From: Actinomycetota bacterium
GTDB lineage: Bacteria > Actinomycetota > Actinomycetes > Nanopelagicales > Nanopelagicaceae
Length of the DNA stretch: 10,125 nt
Direction of reading: 5' to 3'
NCBI GenBank assembly: GCA_009699165.1
Contig: WLOR01000051.1
Coordinates: 1-10,125 of the forward strand
Shown: positions 283 to 10,125 of the stretch, one piece after another
Position numbering within the stretch: position 1 is the first letter of the stretch
Layout: every line of letters starts with the position of its first letter
Translations under genes and position numbers: made by a program
The notes under the pieces: generated by a model
The model's database searches: none
Told to the model about the DNA's origin: nothing
Seen by the model: only the letters and a program-made list of their open reading frames with translations

Positions 283-1086
283 CTATTCGTTAGCGGCCCT
301 TGCTTGATTAAGACGATCAACGGCCTCTTCTGCAAGTTGTTGATCAAAGATCTGATCACGCGAAGGCGATGCTGCAGCAAGTGCTTGGCGCTCTAGACGC
401 TCTTGCTCGTCACTCCAGGCTCCTGGAACCGTTAAATCAATTACGCGCTTTGGAATAATCGCCTTTGGTGCATTGACATATGTTGGAACCGGAACATCAG
501 CTGGCTGCCATGCATTTCGAACCGTTGCTGTTCCTTGAGGCAAAATTACAACACTCTTAAGTTCACGCTCAGAAAGTGGAATCCAGTGCTCTTGAGAAAG
601 CTTAGGTGTTACAACGTCTACTAGATTAGTTGCAGATACACCTGCTGTGCGACGTTGCAACTGTTGAATTCGACGGTGTTGAATTCGATCTGCAATCGTC
701 TGGTGTCTTACGTTTGCAATATAAATCAATATTCCTGTTGCAGGCACTAGTGCATATAAAAACGGCATCGAATTCATAAGGCCTCCTACAATTGTTGCGA
801 CTAGGGAAAATGTCAATAATCCAAAAATAATACGTCGCCTTAAAAGAAGTTGGGCGATCTTTGCTTCGCGATCTAAATCAATATGGTGATGTTCATTAAT
901 CGCAGTTGAGTGTGATGAAGAGTTAGCAACCACCGTTAAAGCAACTTTAAAACGCTCAACCGACTTTCCTGAAAATTCATTGCGGTCATGGATCCAACGG
1001 GGCGCAAAGTAGGCAACCCACATCCCAATAATCGCAATATAAATAATTCCGGAAGTCATGATGTACAAAGATAAAGGAGGAGGCAT
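283..1086 (-). CDS. GlpR-like three-helix membrane protein, candidate receptor for the gephyrin-like protein
   Basis: The 267-residue protein has an N-terminal membrane helix (about 12-28) ending in F-A-P-R-W, a basic/polar stretch with SVERF (42-46), and a His cluster (HHH 66-68). Two closely spaced helices follow (about 86-103 and 107-125). The long, probably cytoplasmic C-terminal tail carries a Trp/Pro-rich block (WQPADVPVPTYV, 193-204, then IDLTVPGAW). This layout matches actinobacterial membrane proteins encoded beside rimJ and moeA, such as Rv0996 of M. tuberculosis and, by my recollection, GlpR of Corynebacterium. It is the last gene of the glp-rimJ-glpR unit, 21 bases after rimJ. The ATG at 1086 has no Shine-Dalgarno and begins with three Pro codons. 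The ATG at 1059 (258 residues, MTSGIIYI...) is an equally good start and better resembles homologues. Role in division is inferred from context and topology. Confidence 0.65.
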   Translation of the reverse strand: MPPPLSLYIMTSGIIYIAIIGMWVAYFAPRWIHDRNEFSGKSVERFKVALTVVANSSSHSTAINEHHHIDLDREAKIAQLLLRRRIIFGLLTFSLVATIVGGLMNSMPFLYALVPATGILIYIANVRHQTIADRIQHRRIQQLQRRTAGVSATNLVDVVTPKLSQEHWIPLSERELKSVVILPQGTATVRNAWQPADVPVPTYVNAPKAIIPKRVIDLTVPGAWSDEQERLERQALAAASPSRDQIFDQQLAEEAVDRLNQARAANE

Positions 1087-1107: not shown

Positions 1108-1680
1108 CTACTTAATTGAGGGATTTTCCTTTACGAAAGCGATATGGTCGCGCCAATCTCCATCGATGTGAAGGTATCTAGCTCGCTCCCCTTCAAAGAT
1201 ATAGCCAGATTTTTCAGCAACTCTGCGAGATGCAGCATTTTCTGGCCGCAGATTAATCTCTAATCGATGCAGCAAAAGATGAGTAAACGCGAAATCAGTT
1301 AAAAGGCCCACTGCCTGCGTCGTATAACCCTTATTGGCATAGTTTCGATCTATCCAATAGCCGATATGGCCCCCTCGAAGAGCCCCCAAAATCACCCCAC
1401 CCAATGAGATTTGCCCGATCAGATTGCGCTGATGCCAGATAGCAAATGAGAATGAATGGCCTTCTCGCGCCTGGCTGTTAAGGCTACGCACCATTTCAAA
1501 GTACGAGGGTAGGTGCTGATAATCCCCATCAGAGTTAAGCAATGGGACGGTGGCCTCCCAGGGCGAAAGCCATGCCCGATTCTGCGCACGCACTGAGTTC
1601 CATTGGCCACGATCACGAAATCGCAGTGGCCGCAGATAAATATCTTCGCCATGTAAGACGGTTGGCCAACGCTGGGTCAT
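1108..1680 (-). CDS. rimJ: RimJ/RimL-type GNAT N-acetyltransferase
   Basis: This 190-residue protein has full GNAT length. The N-terminal strand (GEDIYLRPLRFRD, 11-23) is typical of the RimJ/RimL group. The acetyl-CoA-binding motif A lies in IGYWID (106-111) followed by NYANKGYTT (113-121). Motif B is RPENAASRRVAEKSGY (145-160), the usual NxxSxxvaeKxGF pattern. The family acetylates N-terminal amines of ribosomal or other proteins; the substrate here is unknown. The gene starts 6 bases after the moeA-like stop and ends 21 bases before the membrane-protein gene, so it is probably co-transcribed with both. The same moeA-rimJ-membrane-protein order occurs in Mycobacterium. There is no clear ribosome binding site, so translation is probably coupled to the upstream gene. 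Family call is strong; the symbol is by homology and synteny. Confidence 0.85.
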   Translation of the reverse strand: MTQRWPTVLHGEDIYLRPLRFRDRGQWNSVRAQNRAWLSPWEATVPLLNSDGDYQHLPSYFEMVRSLNSQAREGHSFSFAIWHQRNLIGQISLGGVILGALRGGHIGYWIDRNYANKGYTTQAVGLLTDFAFTHLLLHRLEINLRPENAASRRVAEKSGYIFEGERARYLHIDGDWRDHIAFVKENPSIK

Positions 1681-1686
1681 CGTTTT

Positions 1687-2598
1687 TTAGATGTATCTGC
1701 GCTCGAGGATGACGACCGTGACTGAATCGCCGGCAGATAAGTGAGTTGTCTTTTCCCCAATAGCTATAAAGGCCGTGGCATCAGAGAGTGTTGATATCTC
1801 CTCTTGATCACCCAGCGGCATAACTGATTTTGCATCCTCTGATAATGTGGCGCGAATATACGAGCGCATTCCCGGAGCTGACTCAATCGCCTTTTCAAGT
1901 TTGGCTTTTACCGATGGACGATGAATCGTCGCGGCTCCCAACATTGTTCGAATCATCGGGCGGACAAAGAGTTCGAATGAAATGTAAGCCGCGATTGGAT
2001 CACCTGGCAGAGTTACAACTGGTGTTTGATCGGGACCGATTTGACCATAGTTATGGCGCCCGCTCATTTCGATAGCCATATCCACGGTTGTAATCTCGCC
2101 TATGCGTGAAAGGGTTCGGGTAATGAGATCGAATGAATCATCTTGGCGCTCACCGCTAATAATAATTAAATCCGCGCGCACTAATTGATCTTCTATAACC
2201 TTTTGGAGTTCTTCCTCGTCATCTGGAATCGAATGAACGCGATATGCAACGGCACCAACTTCGCGCACTGCAGTTGTCAGTAGCCACGAGTTAGTTTCGT
2301 ACTCTTCATCGTGGGCAAGGGCTTTACCTGGCTCTACAAGATCTGGGCCAGCTGAAAGGACGACAACGCGAGGATGCGGGCGAGTAGGCAAGTGATCTCG
2401 CCCAATCGATGCAGCAAGACCAATCTGAGTTGAGCGAATTCGACTGCCTGCCCGCATAACCAGGCGCTCACCTGCATAGACATCCTCGGCCAGAGTCGCA
2501 CCATGGGCATCTAGTAATGGCATATCGAAGGAGTCCAGCGGCTTGCAGATGGCGATAAGAGAGGTGAGGAAATCATCTACCCGCGTGTGCTCTGCCAT
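1687..2598 (-). CDS. glp: Gephyrin/MoeA-like protein lacking domain II and active-site motifs (Glp-like)
   Basis: This is a MoeA-family protein of 303 residues, against about 410 for E. coli MoeA. Domain I (1-42, ending LAEDVYA) runs straight into the later part of the family fold (GERLVMRAGSR, from 43), so about 100 residues forming domain II are absent, including the SAMDGYA and MTGA motifs. The MoCF-like domain III follows: VVLSAGPDLVEPG (79-91), YETNSW (100-105), then ISGERQ (147-152) where MoeA has SGGVS, and IEMSGRH (176-182) where MoeA has IKPGKP. LPGDP (197-201) is kept, and domain IV is 225-303. Loss of these parts makes molybdate insertion unlikely. With a GlpR-like gene two positions downstream, it more likely resembles Glp, the gephyrin-like protein that binds FtsZ in Corynebacterium. 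The ATG at 2598 is preferred over the in-frame GTG at 2604 because a -10-like element ends 6 bases before it. Confidence 0.8.
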   Translation of the reverse strand: MAEHTRVDDFLTSLIAICKPLDSFDMPLLDAHGATLAEDVYAGERLVMRAGSRIRSTQIGLAASIGRDHLPTRPHPRVVVLSAGPDLVEPGKALAHDEEYETNSWLLTTAVREVGAVAYRVHSIPDDEEELQKVIEDQLVRADLIIISGERQDDSFDLITRTLSRIGEITTVDMAIEMSGRHNYGQIGPDQTPVVTLPGDPIAAYISFELFVRPMIRTMLGAATIHRPSVKAKLEKAIESAPGMRSYIRATLSEDAKSVMPLGDQEEISTLSDATAFIAIGEKTTHLSAGDSVTVVILERRYI

Positions 2599-2604
2599 AA
2601 TCAC

Positions 2605-2666: not shown

Positions 2667-3215
2667 ATGAATCAGAGCACAGTTAAAAGTGAGCTTCGTG
2701 AGCGACTACGACGTGAGCGACGACAAAAATTTATCGCCTCAAATTTTAATATTATTTTAAAAACACCAGAGGTCATATCTGCATCAACCATCGCCTCGTA
2801 TATTTCATATGAGGTCGAACCAAGCACGACCGAGATCAACAAAGCTTTCCTTAAGGCAGGTAAGCGGGTTTTACTGCCACGAGTAAACGGTGAAGTTCTC
2901 GAATGGATTCAGTGGAGCGGTGATCCGAGCGAGTTAAAAGTGACTAAGAAACTCTCAGAGCCAATAGGTAAACCAGTTACAGATTTGGATGGAATCGACG
3001 TAATGGTCGTGCCAGCTCTTCGGATAGATCAACATGGTTATCGCCTTGGGCAAGGTGGAGGATTTTATGATCGTGCGCTGGCATATCTTCCGGGTTGGAA
3101 GATTGGTTTAGTACATGCAGGCGAGTTAACAAGTCAGAGCCTGCCCCGAGAACCTCATGACATCGCCCTTGATGCTGCGGCAACTCCATCGGTTGTAGTG
3201 CGATTTAAAGTTTAA
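2667..3215 (+). CDS. 5-formyltetrahydrofolate cyclo-ligase
   Basis: The enzyme converts 5-formyltetrahydrofolate to 5,10-methenyltetrahydrofolate with ATP, returning storage folate to one-carbon metabolism in the cytoplasm. At 182 residues it has normal length. The diagnostic HGYRLGQGGGFYDR segment (123-136) carries the glycine-rich ATP/phosphate loop and the YDR signature. The basic N-terminal helix (KSELRERLRRERR) and the SYISYEVEPST strand-loop (44-54) are also typical. The ATG at 2667 follows GGAG (2656-2659) with 7 bases of spacing. It is transcribed divergently from the moeA-like gene across about 68 bases, as in Mycobacterium, except that galU is missing between them here. Its TAA shares bases with the convergent acyl-CoA dehydrogenase stop: the two stops are read from the same palindromic TTAA at 3212-3215. 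Confidence 0.93.
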   Translation: MNQSTVKSELRERLRRERRQKFIASNFNIILKTPEVISASTIASYISYEVEPSTTEINKAFLKAGKRVLLPRVNGEVLEWIQWSGDPSELKVTKKLSEPIGKPVTDLDGIDVMVVPALRIDQHGYRLGQGGGFYDRALAYLPGWKIGLVHAGELTSQSLPREPHDIALDAAATPSVVVRFKV

Positions 3216-4357
3216 GAGTGTGGAAGATTGCGCGCCATCACAATTCGTTGAATCTGATTGGTGCCCTCATAAATCTGAGTTAACTTTGCATCACGCATCA
3301 TTCGCTCAACTGGATAGTCAGAGACATATCCGTAGCCACCCAAAACTTGAATTGCATCCTGCGTTACTTTCATCGCGACATCGCTAGTGAAGCATTTGCT
3401 TGCAGCAGAAAAGAATCGTAAATCCTTTTCATTATTCTCACTCTTAACCGCAGCGGCATAGGTTAATTGACGAGCGGCTTCGATATTCATTGCCATGTCA
3501 GCCAACATAAACTGCACACCTTGAAAATCAAAGATCTCCTTGCCAAACTGTTTGCGCTCATGCGAATACTTTGTTGCTACATCGAGTGCACCTTGAGCCA
3601 AGCCCAAAGCTTGAGCGGCGATAGTGATTCGAGTGTGATCTAAAGTGTTCATTGCAAGCGCAAAACCCTCACCGACTGGGCTGATTCGACGATCATCGCC
3701 GAGTTTTACATTGTCGAAATAAACCTCGCGGGTCGGAGATCCCCTAAAGCCCATCTTCTTTTCGGGAGCGCCAAAAGATATTCCTGGATCGGATTTTTCT
3801 ACTATAAATGCCGTAATTCCCTTCGAGCCAAGCGTTGGATTGCCTTGGGCAATAACCGTATAGAACTCAGAGACTCCTGCATTGGAGATCCACTTCTTAC
3901 TTCCGTTGAGCACCCAGCCATCGCCATCTGGCTCTACCTTCGTTCGAAGTGCAGAAGCATCAGAGCCAGCGTCAGATTCGGAGAGACAGTACGAGAAGCC
4001 TTTTCCAGCAACAAGTTGTGGCAGCCACCGCTTCTTTTGTTCATCACTACCGCCCAGAATTAAAGGAAGCGATCCGAGTTTATTAACTGCTGGAATAAGT
4101 GATGATGCACCACATACTCGTGCGATTTCCTCAATGATAATTACTGTTGCCAAAGCATCTGCGCCATCTCCGCCAAACTCGGTTGGGACATGCGCCGCAC
4201 TTAACCCTGCCTTTTGTAAAGCGATTACGGCCTCTTGCGGATAACGATGTTCTTCATCGACGGACTGAGCATGCGGTGCAATCTCTTTTTCAGATAGCGC
4301 ACGAACGCTTGCGCGCAGCTCTTTATATTCACTAGGTAGATCAAAGATATTTTCCAT
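3212..4357 (-). CDS. Acyl-CoA dehydrogenase (FAD-dependent)
   Basis: This 381-residue flavoprotein catalyses alpha,beta-dehydrogenation of an acyl-CoA, passing electrons to an electron-transfer flavoprotein. Signature 1 is YCLSESDAGSD (123-133) and signature 2 is QVLGGYGYVSDYPVERMMRD (337-356). The catalytic base is Glu364 in IYEGTNQIQR, the position used by short- and medium-chain and branched-chain members. RKQFGKEIFDFQGVQFMLADM (from about 268) is the usual C-terminal helical-domain start. Length and motifs indicate an intact enzyme; chain-length or branched substrate cannot be read from sequence alone. The start ATG overlaps the copD-ctaG stop by one base (TAATG), so translation is probably coupled. 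A weak AGGA lies about 10 bases upstream. Why it sits in a copper/oxidase unit is not obvious. The 3' end overlaps the convergent cyclo-ligase by 4 bases. Confidence 0.93.
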   Translation of the reverse strand: MENIFDLPSEYKELRASVRALSEKEIAPHAQSVDEEHRYPQEAVIALQKAGLSAAHVPTEFGGDGADALATVIIIEEIARVCGASSLIPAVNKLGSLPLILGGSDEQKKRWLPQLVAGKGFSYCLSESDAGSDASALRTKVEPDGDGWVLNGSKKWISNAGVSEFYTVIAQGNPTLGSKGITAFIVEKSDPGISFGAPEKKMGFRGSPTREVYFDNVKLGDDRRISPVGEGFALAMNTLDHTRITIAAQALGLAQGALDVATKYSHERKQFGKEIFDFQGVQFMLADMAMNIEAARQLTYAAAVKSENNEKDLRFFSAASKCFTSDVAMKVTQDAIQVLGGYGYVSDYPVERMMRDAKLTQIYEGTNQIQRIVMARNLPHS

Positions 4358-6204
4358 TAGCTTTCATTCCTATCGCGTTGGGCTAACTCCTGTAAATACT
4401 GGTTGTACTCAGCTAAATCATCGGGCTGTCCCATTGCAGCCGCGCGGACGGTATTGCGATCTATGCGCTTTGCCTCGCGAGAGTCATCCTTGACCCAACT
4501 TATGAAAGTTGCAACAAGTGCAATAAGAATTGGAATCTCGCCCATAGCCCATCCGATAGAGCCACCCAACTGCTGGTCTGCCAAAAGATCTGTCAGCCAA
4601 GGTGTCTTCAATGATGCGAAATATCCGCGATCAATAAGGGTTGTAGAAGACATGAGTGCGACCGAGAAGAAGGCGTGGATGCTCATAGCGGCAAAGACAA
4701 TGACGATTCGCACTAAGTGCGGAACTCGCCGTGGATTTGGATCGATACCGATAATTACGTGAAAGAAGAGGAGTCCGGCAAGAATAAAGTGAATATTCAT
4801 GAAGAGGTGGCCGACGTGACTCTGCATCATCGAACCAAATAAGTTTGTGAAATAAAGAGCAAACAAAGATCCATCAAAAAATGCGAGTGCCACGACTGGA
4901 TACGTATAGAAAATCGCTAATTTAGAATGCAGTGCTGCCAGCAGCGTTGCGCGAACGCCGCGTTCATCTTTAGTTCGGCCTTGTGGCAGAGTTCGTAAAG
5001 CTAAAGTGATTGGTGCGCCTAAAACAATCCCAATTGGTGCAATCATTCCTAAAATCATGTGCGCAACCATGTGATAAGAAAAAGCAAAGTGTGCATAAAG
5101 GCCAAGCCCGCCACTTGTTGCAAAATCAATGAGTGCTATGCCACAAGCAAATGCCACTGTTCGACCAACTGGCCACTTGTCACCACGATGGTGCAAAACT
5201 AAAACACCTTTAACATATAGAGCAACAGCAGTAATCAGAAGGCCGATCATCAACGCATCAGGCTCGTAACTAAAGAAAATTCTCCCCCAAGTAGGAGCTG
5301 GTGGTGTTGGGATTCCGGAGACTGCTATCGCAGGATCGAAGGCTTGGCGTCCTGGTCTTTCGGGTGCTTGGTTAGATGAGAGCCATGCACCCATTGCAAC
5401 GGTTACAACCATAATTACTGCTTCGACGAAAATTAATCTTCCAAAGCCTAACCAATCAATTTGATCGCGCTTTGCTAAGTTTTCACGGTGCACATATCCA
5501 ATGGCTACTAAAATTAAAGTCAGAGCGATCTTCGCAATCACTACATAGGCATACGCCGAGTTCCAAGCCCCCTGAAAATCGAGTCTTGCCCAAGCATTGA
5601 CCGTACCGCTGGCAATAACGGCAAGAATTGACCACAGGGCTAGTTCGCTAAAGCGATGAACTGCAATTGGGCGGTCTTCTGGCTCTATGAGCGCAATAGC
5701 AATCACGCCCCCAACCCACAGAGAGAGTGCGGCAACATGAATAACTAAAGAGCCGATTGCCAAACCATGCGAGCCACTAGAAGCAGCATGACTTTGAAAA
5801 ATAGGTGCAACTAATCCCAAAAGAGCAAGAACAAGCATGAATGCCGCAGAGAGAATCTTTTTGACGCGAAAAGCAAAAACCGCAATCACTAATCCGACAA
5901 TAGCTTCGAAGAGTAAGTATTGGCCAAGAGTTATCTGGGTAATAAAAGATCGTAAAACAGTTGCATCTAGTGCAACTGATACTGGTTGATCCAAAATTGT
6001 CGCAAGCGTAAATACAATCGTTCCGAAACTTCCGACTGACCAGAGAATTGCAGAGCCCCACAAGAGTCGGCGAAGTTTTTCACCCTGAGTTGAGAGTCGA
6101 CCCTGGGTATCCAACAGCAAGAAACTCATTGCCAACAAACTCCCGATAGTCGTAAAACTTCCAACTAGTGAGAGATACTTAAAAATTACATTTAACGCAA
6201 TCAT
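4357..6204 (-). CDS. ctaG: CopD-CtaG fusion: copper transport / cytochrome oxidase assembly membrane protein
   Basis: This polytopic 615-residue protein joins two domains, a fusion common in Actinobacteria. The CopD-like half (about 1-275) has some eight hydrophobic helices, with SHAASSGSH (138-146), H156 and LWVGG (162-166) matching the CopD core. After a Pro-rich linker (about 280-305) comes the caa3-type CtaG half. Its pattern is HFAFSYHMVAH (372-382) with LGAPITL, then SHVGHLFMNIHF (462-473), H482 and DPNPR (488-492), H510, and the DQQLGGSIGW motif (543-552). The many intramembrane histidines suit Cu binding. Proteins of this kind import copper or deliver it to the CuB site of haem-copper oxidase at the plasma membrane. 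The C-terminal 45 residues are charged and cytoplasmic. The ATG overlaps the copC-like stop in ATGA (6201-6204), and its stop overlaps the acyl-CoA dehydrogenase start, so all three genes are coupled. Confidence 0.92.
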   Translation of the reverse strand: MIALNVIFKYLSLVGSFTTIGSLLAMSFLLLDTQGRLSTQGEKLRRLLWGSAILWSVGSFGTIVFTLATILDQPVSVALDATVLRSFITQITLGQYLLFEAIVGLVIAVFAFRVKKILSAAFMLVLALLGLVAPIFQSHAASSGSHGLAIGSLVIHVAALSLWVGGVIAIALIEPEDRPIAVHRFSELALWSILAVIASGTVNAWARLDFQGAWNSAYAYVVIAKIALTLILVAIGYVHRENLAKRDQIDWLGFGRLIFVEAVIMVVTVAMGAWLSSNQAPERPGRQAFDPAIAVSGIPTPPAPTWGRIFFSYEPDALMIGLLITAVALYVKGVLVLHHRGDKWPVGRTVAFACGIALIDFATSGGLGLYAHFAFSYHMVAHMILGMIAPIGIVLGAPITLALRTLPQGRTKDERGVRATLLAALHSKLAIFYTYPVVALAFFDGSLFALYFTNLFGSMMQSHVGHLFMNIHFILAGLLFFHVIIGIDPNPRRVPHLVRIVIVFAAMSIHAFFSVALMSSTTLIDRGYFASLKTPWLTDLLADQQLGGSIGWAMGEIPILIALVATFISWVKDDSREAKRIDRNTVRAAAMGQPDDLAEYNQYLQELAQRDRNES

Positions 6205-6722
6205 CTATCCCTAAATAGTTTTCGTGCATATAGTGATAACCCAATAAGTACAAAGAAAGCAATAATCAGAATTGCAAAGATAAAAACATTTGTTCCCCAA
6301 CTACTACTTGCTGGAGTCTGCGACTGTGTTGGTGTCGGAGATGGTTCGGTTGGGGTAATAACACTGGGTGCTGAAAAATTAAATGTGAAAGATCCTTGTA
6401 GTGGTACTTCGCCTTCGGAATAAAGCGTGTACGCAACCCGGTAAATTCCAGATTCAGTCAGAGGTTTCAATCCGATAGTTGCATTTACACCGTCAACGGT
6501 GATGGTTCCATCGTCGACTCGAATTCCAGATGGGTCAGTGACAATCAACTCGTTTGCATCAGCTATCAAATCAACCTGCGAGGTTAAAGTGACATAACTC
6601 GGAGGTGTAGCCAACGTCGAACCGCTGATGGGTGATGTCGTAATGAGTGAATTAGCCGACGCAGATGCAAGTCCAGCGTAGGTAAGCAGCACTAAAAGTG
6701 CGGCCAGGCCCTTGATTCTCAA
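6201..6722 (-). CDS. copC: Membrane-anchored CopC-like protein lacking Cu(II) ligands
   Basis: This is a 173-residue exported protein. The start chosen is TTG 6722, because GAGGGAG (6734-6728) precedes it by 5 bases and because it places MRIKGLAALLVLL directly as a signal peptide. The ATG at 6785 would add 21 polar residues before the signal. Cleavage is likely after ASA (residue 23). The CopC-type beta domain follows (24-117) with the TTSPISGSTL and GIYRVAYTLYSEGEVPLQGSF segments. A Ser/Thr/Pro linker (about 122-141), one C-terminal helix (about 146-167) and a basic RKLFRDR tail complete it. Classical CopC binds Cu(II) through an N-terminal His and the Asp and His of an ADGH motif. Here the mature N-terminus is Asn and the motif reads SEGEVP (102-107), so these ligands are missing. 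It probably partners the CopD domain encoded immediately downstream. Confidence 0.88.
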   Translation of the reverse strand: MRIKGLAALLVLLTYAGLASASANSLITTSPISGSTLATPPSYVTLTSQVDLIADANELIVTDPSGIRVDDGTITVDGVNATIGLKPLTESGIYRVAYTLYSEGEVPLQGSFTFNFSAPSVITPTEPSPTPTQSQTPASSSWGTNVFIFAILIIAFFVLIGLSLYARKLFRDR

Positions 6723-6727
6723 CGTAA

Positions 6728-6734
6728 CTCCCTC
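6728..6734 (-). promoter_or_regulatory. Shine-Dalgarno that fixes the copC-like TTG start
   Basis: The minus strand reads GAGGGAG, then TTACG, then TTG. The 5-base spacing is optimal, and there is no comparable site before the ATG at 6785. This is the main reason to place the start at 6722 rather than 6785. Confidence 0.8.
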
Positions 6735-6750
6735 ACTATTGGATGTCGAT

Positions 6751-6779
6751 TCGACCCTATCGTGCCACTTCTTTAGACT
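6751..6779 (+). promoter_or_regulatory. Candidate sigma70-type promoter for the fmdB-like gene
   Basis: TCGACC (6751-6756) and TAGACT (6774-6779) are separated by 17 bases, each matching 4 of 6 consensus positions. Transcription would start near 6786, giving a leader of about 40 bases that contains the C4-A4-G4-T4 element and the GGAG site. The pattern is weak and could be chance. Confidence 0.35.
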
Positions 6780-6788
6780 ACGCATCTA

Positions 6789-9386: not shown

Positions 9387-10125
9387 ATGAGAAAACTTTG
9401 CGCAGCGGTTCTGTTATTCATGTTAATTGGTAGCGGAGTTGCGCAAGCACATCAACCCGTTGTGTTGTTGGATTCGGATACAACTGCTGCCAAGGGCCCA
9501 TTGCTAACCGATGGAACTGTTTCTTATGCCATTAGAGCATGGTTCACAAAATCTGGACAAAAGAAAGCTTTTAGGGCTCAATTCAATGTCGGAGATGCCC
9601 TTTCGGTTCAGTACTTGATTGTTGATAAGCAACCAGAGAATTCTTTGCGGACGAGTGCACTTCCAAGATTAGTAATCACATCACCTTCAGGCACGTCTAT
9701 TTCCATAAATTTAAATGAACGAGTGAAGTTTTATGAACCTTTTAGTAAAGTAAATTACTTATATCTTTCTCGCTATAGCGCAGTTGCAAAAGCGGGTGTT
9801 TATAGCTTCACTATTACATCAAAGGGTAAAGCTGAGATCACAGTTGCAGTTGGTGATAAGGAGATTCCTGGTGAAGTTTTGCGCGGTACAAAACCAACGC
9901 CGACGCCGACTTCAACATCGTCTTCAACGGCATCTCCAACACCTTCGGCTTCACCCGCTGGATACACCATGGCGCAAGTTAAGGCCAATAACAGCTCAAA
10001 GAGCTGTTGGGCTGTTATTGATGGATTTGTTTACAACTTAACATCGTGGATTAATTCACACCCGGGTGGCTCTAGTGCAATTGTTTCTTTGTGTGGCACA
10101 GATGCAACATCGACTTTTAAATCCC
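9387..10125 (+). CDS. Secreted protein with C-terminal cytochrome b5-like haem domain (cut by window end)
   Basis: The frame is open from ATG 9387 to the window edge (246 complete codons). A signal peptide (MRKLCAAVLLFMLIG...AQA, cleavage about residue 21) leads into an unrecognised, probably beta-rich domain (22-166) containing FNVGDALSVQYLIVD and FYEPFS. A Ser/Thr/Pro linker (about 168-191) precedes a cytochrome b5-like domain from 192: CWAVIDGFVYNLTSWI (207-222), then HPGG (225-228) with the first axial haem His, H225, then CGTDAT. The second axial His should lie just past the edge. C207 and C236 could form a disulphide, which would suit an extracytoplasmic domain. Cys5 is not in a lipobox. 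A redox or electron-transfer role outside the cell membrane is inferred; partners are unknown. The copper/oxidase genes are 2.7 kb away and not clearly linked. Confidence 0.85.
   Translation, partial: MRKLCAAVLLFMLIGSGVAQAHQPVVLLDSDTTAAKGPLLTDGTVSYAIRAWFTKSGQKKAFRAQFNVGDALSVQYLIVDKQPENSLRTSALPRLVITSPSGTSISINLNERVKFYEPFSKVNYLYLSRYSAVAKAGVYSFTITSKGKAEITVAVGDKEIPGEVLRGTKPTPTPTSTSSSTASPTPSASPAGYTMAQVKANNSSKSCWAVIDGFVYNLTSWINSHPGGSSAIVSLCGTDATSTFKS

What the first reader, a model, noticed from the sequence alone, without database searches (positions are those of the whole stretch)
1687..2598. MoeA homologue stripped of domain II and catalytic motifs: a minimal gephyrin-like division protein?
The sequence joins domain I (LAEDVYA) directly to the region after domain II (GERLVMRAGSR), losing about 100 residues with the SAMDGYA and MTGA motifs. 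SGGVS has become SGERQ and PGKP has become MSGRH. Such a protein should not insert molybdate. Domains III and IV, which in gephyrin form the pocket for receptor peptides, remain. In Corynebacterium a gephyrin-like protein (Glp) binds FtsZ and a membrane receptor. Here evolution seems to have kept only the scaffold part, which would be an unusually reduced Glp.
Basis: partly seen in the sequence, partly recalled or inferred. Interest (0 to 1): 0.82.

Follow-up and report, generated by a model that had tools for sequence, protein, structure and literature searches.

The report
Division scaffold that lost its enzyme half
In small-genome freshwater bacteria, a protein descended from a molybdenum-cofactor enzyme has lost the part that did the chemistry but still sits beside its membrane partner, apparently kept only as a cell-division scaffold, and the same trimming seems to have happened three separate times.

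Summary
The 305-aa ORF (1687-2604, minus; ATG at 2598) is orthologous to the actinobacterial divisome protein Glp, with domain II cleanly removed and the remaining active-site motifs eroded, in the order Glp-acetyltransferase-GlpR. It is no oddity: 14 of 16 sampled genera of its family share it; two sister genera keep full-length Glp beside moaC. Of 130 genomes with mini-Glp and no other MoeA, none has MoaC or the one molybdoenzyme domain searched, so it is not a molybdenum insertase. Domain II was lost independently in two other families (single origin rejected, p-AU 3e-6; one of the two rests on one sequence). Purifying selection and a confident fold argue against decay. In all 54 Glps compared, full and mini, a hinge proline and a D-Q-x-x-R helix of domain III are invariant, yet rare in MoeA paralogues. 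Against: the published FtsZ-binding loop is eroded, and DivIVA/Wag31 was not detected in 26 of 26 genomes. Best reading: a Glp reduced to its GlpR-linked scaffold; direct FtsZ binding is unproven. New variant of a known kind.

The parts
1687..2604 (-). mini-Glp ORF, 305 aa from GTG 2604 or 303 aa from ATG 2598 (more likely start)
2386..2547 (-). domain I (both halves joined), residues about 20-73
   Evidence: boundaries by alignment to 8bve
2470..2481 (-). deletion junction: LAEDV | AGERLV; about 99 residues (domain II) missing here
1930..2385 (-). domain III (MogA-like), residues about 74-225
1702..1929 (-). domain IV, residues about 226-301
2539..2541 (-). Pro22, hinge 1 proline, Glp-specific (50 of 54 Glps, 1 of 16 MoeA)
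2377..2379 (-). Pro76, hinge 2 proline (RPHPRVV), 54 of 54 Glps, 0 of 16 MoeA paralogues
2170..2193 (-). EDQLVRAD helix end (D139, Q140, R143 in 54 of 54 Glps)
2143..2157 (-). SGERQ, eroded SGGVS active-site motif
2053..2067 (-). MSGRH, eroded PG(M/K)PQG motif
2029..2040 (-). IGPD loop, Glp-specific (G190, D192; G187 just before it)
1996..2010 (-). LPGDP, changed LPGNP motif
1822..1845 (-). equivalent of the C. glutamicum FtsZ-binding hairpin (360-370), shortened, Tyr369 absent
1108..1680 (-). GNAT acetyltransferase (RimJ-like) between glp and glpR
283..1086 (-). GlpR/SepX membrane protein, 267 aa (NF050099, 90.7 bits, below cut-off 150)
415..513 (-). GlpR segment WxPxxVPxPTYV..P.A..R.IDLT.PG.W, candidate Glp-binding segment
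286..300 (-). GlpR C-terminus RAANE, second candidate
2667..3215 (+). 5-formyltetrahydrofolate cyclo-ligase, divergent neighbour as in the ancestral locus (no galU between, here)

Best explanation
A mini-Glp: the divisome scaffold Glp after loss of molybdenum-cofactor synthesis in this lineage. Shown: moaC and mog left the ancestral locus galU-glp-moaC-mog-GNAT-glpR, and glp lost domain II and its catalytic motifs, while glp-GNAT-glpR stayed together. Inferred: it forms a MoeA-type dimer, docks on the membrane protein GlpR at the division site and acts purely as a scaffold that helps organise the FtsZ ring. The conserved hinge prolines and the DQxxR helix of domain III are the most likely working surface. 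Contact with the FtsZ tail may persist through the remaining hydrophobic pocket of domain IV or may now be indirect.
For: Glp identity: NF045515 271.7 bits against MoeA_actino 201.5; 54 Glp-locus proteins are separated from 16 MoeA paralogues, 100/100. Gene order Glp-GNAT-GlpR in 19 of 20 regions, the twentieth ending at a contig edge. Moco-independence: 130 of 188 mini-Glp genomes have no MoeA_N; of these 0 have MoaC and 0 have MoCoBD_1. Ancestral operon: 11 of 11 loci from 8 other families have hits for glp, moaC, mog, GNAT and glpR; genus g8 keeps it; 0 of 16 mini regions has a moaC or mog hit. Selection: median dN/dS 0.045 over 148 pairs of 20 sequences. Fold: pLDDT 91.4, pTM 0.89, aligned over 292 residues to 8bve_B. 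Glp-specific residues are kept in three independent mini lineages. FtsZ tail D(V/I)PDF(M/L)(K/R) in 29 of 29 FtsZ found.
Against: The published FtsZ loop signature is not met: Tyr369 in 0 of 26 mini-Glps of this family; Met361 and Leu343 equivalents are not kept either, though these are mostly absent in full-length outgroups too (Met361 falls in an alignment gap, so this depends on the alignment) and Tyr369 is present in only 6 of 11 of them. Domain IV has about three times the dN/dS of domain III. The AlphaFold monomer superposes better on MoeA/Cnx1E (2.0-2.3 A) than on C. glutamicum Glp (3.2-3.4 A), whereas the open Glp form makes the FtsZ site. DivIVA was not found. C. glutamicum Glp, the only one tested at the bench, has Ser at the Asp139 position (it keeps Gln and Arg). 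No localisation or binding data were found for any mini-Glp.
Confidence: 0.75

Rival explanations
1. Mini-Glp works with GlpR at the membrane but no longer touches FtsZ; the Glp-GlpR pair has a second, FtsZ-independent job that is the part kept under selection.
For: FtsZ loop eroded and domain IV least conserved, while the domain III and hinge signature is invariant. GlpR stays next door. No DivIVA detected in 26 of 26 genomes, so the published FtsZ-to-Wag31 bridge is unlikely to be the retained function.
Against: FtsZ tail conserved in 29 of 29, though SepF would also need it; Val338, Leu360 and Phe414 pocket positions mostly stay hydrophobic (23, 25 and 22 of 26).
Confidence: 0.35
2. It is still a Moco enzyme of reduced form, or borrows domain II from another protein.
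For: Domain III keeps the MogA-like fold; 58 of 188 mini-Glp genomes also hold a MoeA_N protein.
Against: 130 mini-Glp genomes lack MoeA_N, MoaC and MoCoBD_1. Domain II residues and the SGGVS and PGxP motifs are gone. Of 61 genomes with MoaC, 56 hold a MoeA_N protein other than Glp, 4 hold full-length Glp and 1 has none found.
Confidence: 0.03
3. A decaying pseudogene or relic kept by chance.
For: Long stem branch (0.89 changes per column) at the base of the mini clade; 7 of 201 genomes show no match and 2 only a weak or partial one, mostly fragmented assemblies.
Against: dN/dS median 0.045, highest 0.094 (dS near saturation); open frames with the gene order kept across 14 genera; confident fold; same outcome three times.
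Confidence: 0.03
4. The three mini lineages share one deletion spread by horizontal transfer rather than three losses.
For: The junction lies at nearly the same domain boundary in all three. One f39 record is titled Candidatus Nanopelagicales bacterium, so that family may be nearer than the tool's grouping suggests.
Against: Forcing all minis into one clade lowers lnL by 73, p-AU 3.1e-6; each non-family mini groups with full-length Glp of its own family (97/80 and 100/100) and sits in a galU-glp-GNAT-glpR locus. Caution: long branches meet in that tree, and f5 has one mini sequence.
Confidence: 0.04

Closest known systems
Glp of Corynebacterium glutamicum (Cgl0883, PDB 8bve/8bvf; PMC10522489)
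   Same: Same clade by NCBIfam ranking, glpR nearby, Pro-rich hinge (P76 kept), degraded active site, domains I, III and IV
   Different: Domain II (residues 46-145) missing; FtsZ-binding loop shortened without Tyr369; here often the only MoeA-like protein; no Wag31 detected
GlpR / SepX (C. glutamicum Cgl0885; Streptomyces SepX, PMC8748795)
   Same: Neighbouring membrane protein, three hydropathy peaks, NF050099 match
   Different: Shorter (267 aa), below the curated NCBIfam cut-off; no DivIVA/Wag31 found in the genomes searched
MoeA / gephyrin E domain / Cnx1E
   Different: No domain II, no catalytic motifs, no Moco pathway in most of these genomes
Full-length Glp-locus protein of sister genera g8 and g15
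   Same: Same locus, same clade, same hinge and DQxxR signature
   Different: 404-409 aa open frames, SAMDG, MTGAP, SGGVS and LPGNP kept, beside moaC, the only MoeA_N found in genomes with molybdoenzyme domains: possibly still an enzyme, although the E. coli Lys279 position is Gln

Membership tests
Glp (divisome, Martinez et al. 2023) | Monophyletic with Glp, apart from MoeA | tested here: met
   54 Glp-locus proteins against 16 MoeA paralogues, 100/100; C. glutamicum Glp itself was not in that tree; 7 of 9 full-length ones scanned pass the Glp cut-off
Glp (divisome, Martinez et al. 2023) | Two Pro-rich hinge regions | tested here: met
   P22 in 26 of 26 and P76 in 26 of 26 mini-Glps of this family
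Glp (divisome, Martinez et al. 2023) | FtsZ-binding loop with Met361 and Tyr369 | tested here: not met
   Tyr369 0 of 26, loop shorter; so it is a derivative of Glp, not a canonical Glp
Glp (divisome, Martinez et al. 2023) | Four domains I-IV | tested here: not met
   Domain II absent
Glp (divisome, Martinez et al. 2023) | glpR gene nearby | tested here: met
   19 of 19 regions that could be read to the end
Glp (divisome, Martinez et al. 2023) | Curated NCBIfam score NF045515 of at least 475 | tested here: not met
   271.7 bits; profile positions 1-138 unmatched
Glp (divisome, Martinez et al. 2023) | Binds FtsZ tail and GlpR, septal localisation | not testable with these tools
   needs binding and imaging
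MoeA molybdopterin molybdotransferase | Domain II and SAMDGYA, MTGAP, SGGVS, PGxP motifs | tested here: not met
MoeA molybdopterin molybdotransferase | Works in a genome with MoaC and molybdoenzymes | tested here: not met
   own genome: no MoaC, MoCoBD_1 or MoeA_N (genome 83% complete); 0 of 130 comparable genomes
SepX/GlpR (for window 283-1086) | NCBIfam SepX_GlpR score over cut-off | tested here: not met
   NF050099 90.7 bits, cut-off 150; gene position agrees

The most novel reading that the evidence does not exclude
Glp began as a moonlighting enzyme, both molybdenum insertase and divisome scaffold, and may still be one in actinobacteria where it is the only MoeA found and sits with moaC-mog. 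Each time a lineage drops Moco synthesis the enzyme half is shed, first the motifs and then the whole of domain II. Three independent reductions therefore mark the true division surface: not the FtsZ loop of domain IV but the hinge and the DQxxR helix of domain III, acting through GlpR in cells that lack DivIVA/Wag31.
Probability: 0.3. Interest if true: 0.86.

Novelty: new variant of a known kind. Interest (0 to 1): 0.74.

Why it matters
Whether Glp is a repurposed or a moonlighting enzyme is open to test here. These lineages are a natural separation-of-function experiment: the retained function needs neither Moco catalysis nor domain II, and intermediates exist (full-length with moaC-mog; full-length with eroded motifs and no moaC-mog; domain II gone). 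They do not fit a statement in PMC11733289 (abstract and passages seen) that Glp-bearing bacteria have at least two MoeA copies: 29 of 40 class genomes chosen mostly for their good Glp match have one MoeA_N, and 130 family genomes have none besides mini-Glp. Its second statement, that Glp lost the active site, is only partly at odds: SAMDG, MTGA, SGGVS and LPGNP are essentially kept in 15 of 15 full-length Glps, but the position of E. coli Lys279 is Gln in all 15, and 5 of 5 full-length Glps of f5/g20 and f39/g94 are eroded. Glp and GlpR also persist where Wag31 was not found, so the published bridge to the polar elongasome cannot be their only role if that absence holds.

Tried and rejected
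Pseudogene: rejected by dN/dS and conservation. Moco enzyme: rejected by absence of MoaC and of the one molybdoenzyme domain searched; MoaA, MoaE and other molybdoenzyme families were not searched. Single origin of all minis: rejected by AU test. G510's 274-aa and G273's 242-aa ORFs looked like further minis, but G510's region ends with its contig (L185) and G273's match begins at base 2 of its contig. Foldseek and VIA-align: by rmsd the monomer lies nearer to MoeA/Cnx1E than to C. glutamicum Glp; Foldseek by E-value ranks 8bvf/8bve first. A DivIVA gene was sought between yggT and ileS: none in 7 of 7 regions, own genome included (yggT and ileS checked by Pfam in the own genome only); that wag31 usually lies there is recalled. 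The FtsZ tree supports full-length versus mini lineages only weakly (76/57), the neighbour-gene tree 99/99. Class-wide scan: of 150 listed rows 109 lie outside the family and 107 of these have open frames of 400 aa or more; the 15 genomes were the only others placed (one of them, G510, was also among the 109), so mini-Glps may be commoner. In one search N-termini were cut by rule to a nearby start. The tools' family codes are unnamed; one f39 record is titled Candidatus Nanopelagicales bacterium (L197). P0001 (364 aa, odd score) was not pursued.

Mended on checking: I had written that galU left the locus together with moaC, mog and domain II. One search shows galU still beside mini-glp in 2 of 16 regions (g13, g5), so its loss came later. 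The same call shows Gln at the Lys279 position in 17 of 18 full-length Glps of the window's family and the other-family set (His in 1), and Arg in 16 of 16 MoeA paralogues. I therefore lowered the novel case from 0.4 to 0.3. It also shows the GlpR motif is not universal.

Literature: no listed paper is about a Glp without domain II or Glp in Nanopelagicales, as far as titles, abstract starts and the passages I opened show; only open-licence full texts were searched. PMC10522489: first two parts, sections 9, 10, 11 and passages read; PMC11733289: abstract, outline and passages; PMC8748795: passages; all others search listing only.

Full report
What is there. The ORF at 1687-2604 (minus) gives 305 aa from a GTG or 303 aa from the ATG at 2598; most of the 120 listed database relatives are 303 aa long. 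Pfam recognises domains III and IV only. NCBIfam's best model is Glp (NF045515, 271.7 bits against a cut-off of 475, profile 139-403), ahead of MoeA_actino (201.5). Downstream lie a GNAT acetyltransferase and a membrane protein matching SepX/GlpR (NF050099, 90.7 bits, cut-off 150). In C. glutamicum glp is Cgl0883 and glpR Cgl0885 (PMC10522489); that the gene between is rimJ-like is recalled. That these are freshwater plankton is recalled.

Distribution. Of 201 genomes in the order sample, 194 match; 188 are strong matches outside the full-length genera. I read 30 Glps from all 16 genera: 26 from 14 genera lack domain II, 4 from genera g8 and g15 keep it. A fifth genome, G160 (g8), shows only a fragment at a contig end. 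Trees put the minis in one clade, with Glp itself (26 rows, 100/100) and with neighbouring genes (16 rows, 99/99); FtsZ agrees weakly (76/57).

Operon history. In 11 of 11 loci from eight other families of the class there are hits for glp, moaC, mog, GNAT and glpR, with a galU hit upstream in 8 of 11 (in some loci ORF calls overlap). Genus g8 keeps galU-glp-moaC-mog-GNAT-glpR in 3 of 3 (domains of galU, mog and moaC of one copy confirmed by Pfam); g15 has galU-glp-moaC up to its contig end. The 16 mini regions have glp-GNAT-glpR and no moaC or mog hit; galU remains in 2 of 16 (g13, g5), so it was lost later. Domain II, moaC and mog thus left on the same branch as far as sampled.

Moco-independence. 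MoeA_N occurs in 64 of 201 genomes, MoaC in 61, the molybdoenzyme domain MoCoBD_1 in 19. Of 188 mini-Glp genomes, 130 have no MoeA_N; 0 of these has MoaC and 0 has MoCoBD_1. The window's own genome has none of the three. Single-contig genomes of the same genus (G001-G005, 99% complete) also lack MoeA_N and MoaC.

Convergence. A class-wide sample and a follow-up of 15 genomes, mostly small, gave further domain-II-less Glps in family f39, genus g93 (4 genomes; 307 aa), and family f5, genus g71 (1 genome; 308 aa). All five sit in galU-glp-GNAT-glpR. Their sister genera (g94, one genome; g20, four) have full-length Glp with eroded motifs (for example CEGYA or KVDGYC for SAMDGYA) and no moaC or mog hit. 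A tree of 54 Glps needs three changes, and one clade for all minis is rejected (lnL difference 73.4, p-AU 3.1e-6). The f39 type recurs in 12 named metagenome records at 65-78% identity, two of them partial and one the record of a genome already used, and its model also folds well (pLDDT 91.0, pTM 0.88). The f5 mini is one sequence on a long branch and deserves more caution.

What is kept. I compared 54 Glps with 16 MoeA paralogues of the window's family. In every Glp but rare in MoeA: Pro76 (54 of 54; 0 of 16), Asp139 (54; 1), Gln140 (54; 0), Arg143 (54; 3). Nearly so: Gly187 (53; 0), Gly190 (53; 1), Asp192 (51; 2), Arg215 (51; 3), Pro22 (50; 1). C. glutamicum Glp is not among the 54; it has Ser at 139 but keeps the Pro76, Gln140, Arg143, Gly187, Gly190 and Arg215 equivalents. 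The two prolines match the published hinge signature. The third published signature, the FtsZ loop, is not kept: Tyr369 in 0 of 26 minis, 4 of 4 full-length relatives, 6 of 11 outgroups; the Val338, Leu360 and Phe414 positions stay mostly hydrophobic. Domain III has sum dN/sum dS of 0.055 against 0.156 for domain IV (synonymous sites are near saturation, so these are rough).

Partners. FtsZ was found in 29 of 30 genomes searched; all 29 tails end D(V/I)PDF(M/L)(K/R). SepF is in 24 of 26. DivIVA/Wag31 was found in 0 of 26, with C. glutamicum positive as control, and no gene lies between yggT and ileS in 7 of 7 regions. GlpR shows a conserved cytoplasmic segment (WxPxxVPxPTYV...R.IDLT.PG.W) and C-terminus in most of 31 sequences from this family and outgroups; a form of it is in 4 of 4 f39 mini neighbours but was not found in the one f5 mini neighbour, nor in f41 or f34. 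In C. glutamicum, lack of the GlpR C-terminal disordered region partly copies loss of Glp (PMC10522489 section 9), so this segment is a reasonable Glp-binding candidate (inference).

Mechanism. Shown: a Moco-free, conserved, GlpR-linked Glp without domain II. Inferred: it dimerises (as MoeA does, recalled), binds GlpR, and supports Z-ring organisation. Unknown: whether it touches FtsZ directly. The monomer model resembles MoeA more than C. glutamicum Glp by rmsd, and the FtsZ loop is eroded, so I keep an FtsZ-independent version as a serious rival.

Relation to print. PMC11733289 concludes that Glp is repurposed rather than moonlighting and that its bearers have at least two MoeA copies (abstract and passages). 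Here 29 of 40 class genomes, 34 of them picked for a good Glp match, have exactly one MoeA_N; in the three I compared (G205, G249, G340) it is the Glp-locus protein. The 15 full-length Glps essentially keep SAMDG, MTGA, SGGVS and LPGNP, and genus g8 has no other MoeA_N although it has MoaC and molybdoenzyme domains. Against catalysis, the residue aligned with E. coli Lys279 (mutated in PDB 2nro) is Gln in all 15, whereas the 16 MoeA paralogues have Arg there. Dual function in the ancestor is therefore open, not shown; it needs enzymology.

Noticed in passing
G000 C69 (L149) and L147, L148, L151-L154: between yggT and ileS: No DivIVA/Wag31 gene in this actinobacterial family where looked for, although ftsZ, sepF and yggT are in order; PF05103 0 of 26 genomes.
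   Followed up: partly
L175-L179 (families f39 and f5 of the same class): Independent domain-II-less Glps in two other small-genome lineages, with eroded full-length Glp in their sister genera.
   Followed up: yes
L114-L117 (genera g8, g15): Full-length Glp with most catalytic motifs, the only MoeA_N found in genomes with moaC and molybdoenzyme domains, yet Gln at the E. coli Lys279 position: a possible moonlighting Glp.
   Followed up: partly
window 415-513 and 286-300 (minus), GlpR: Conserved cytoplasmic motif and C-terminal RA(V/A)(N/G)(D/E) in GlpR of many but not all families; not described in the passages I read.
   Followed up: partly
L122, L123 (genera g13, g5): galU is still beside mini-glp here, unlike the other 14 mini regions: galU was lost after domain II.
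   Followed up: yes
L186, L187 (family f34): Glp-moaC-mog present but no GNAT or GlpR hit in the fetched 12 kb.
   Followed up: no
window 9387-10124 (plus): Putative secreted protein ending in a cytochrome b5-like domain (PF00173, 57.6 bits), cut by the window end.
   Followed up: no
window 3212-6785 (minus): CopC-like and CopD/CtaG fusion genes next to an acyl-CoA dehydrogenase; CtaG and the dehydrogenase recur beside the locus in many relatives.
   Followed up: no
58 of 188 mini-Glp genomes: A MoeA_N protein, with MoaC in 55 of the 58, beside mini-Glp in the same genome (at other places where both were listed): patchy Moco synthesis, regained or retained, with mini-Glp left reduced.
   Followed up: partly
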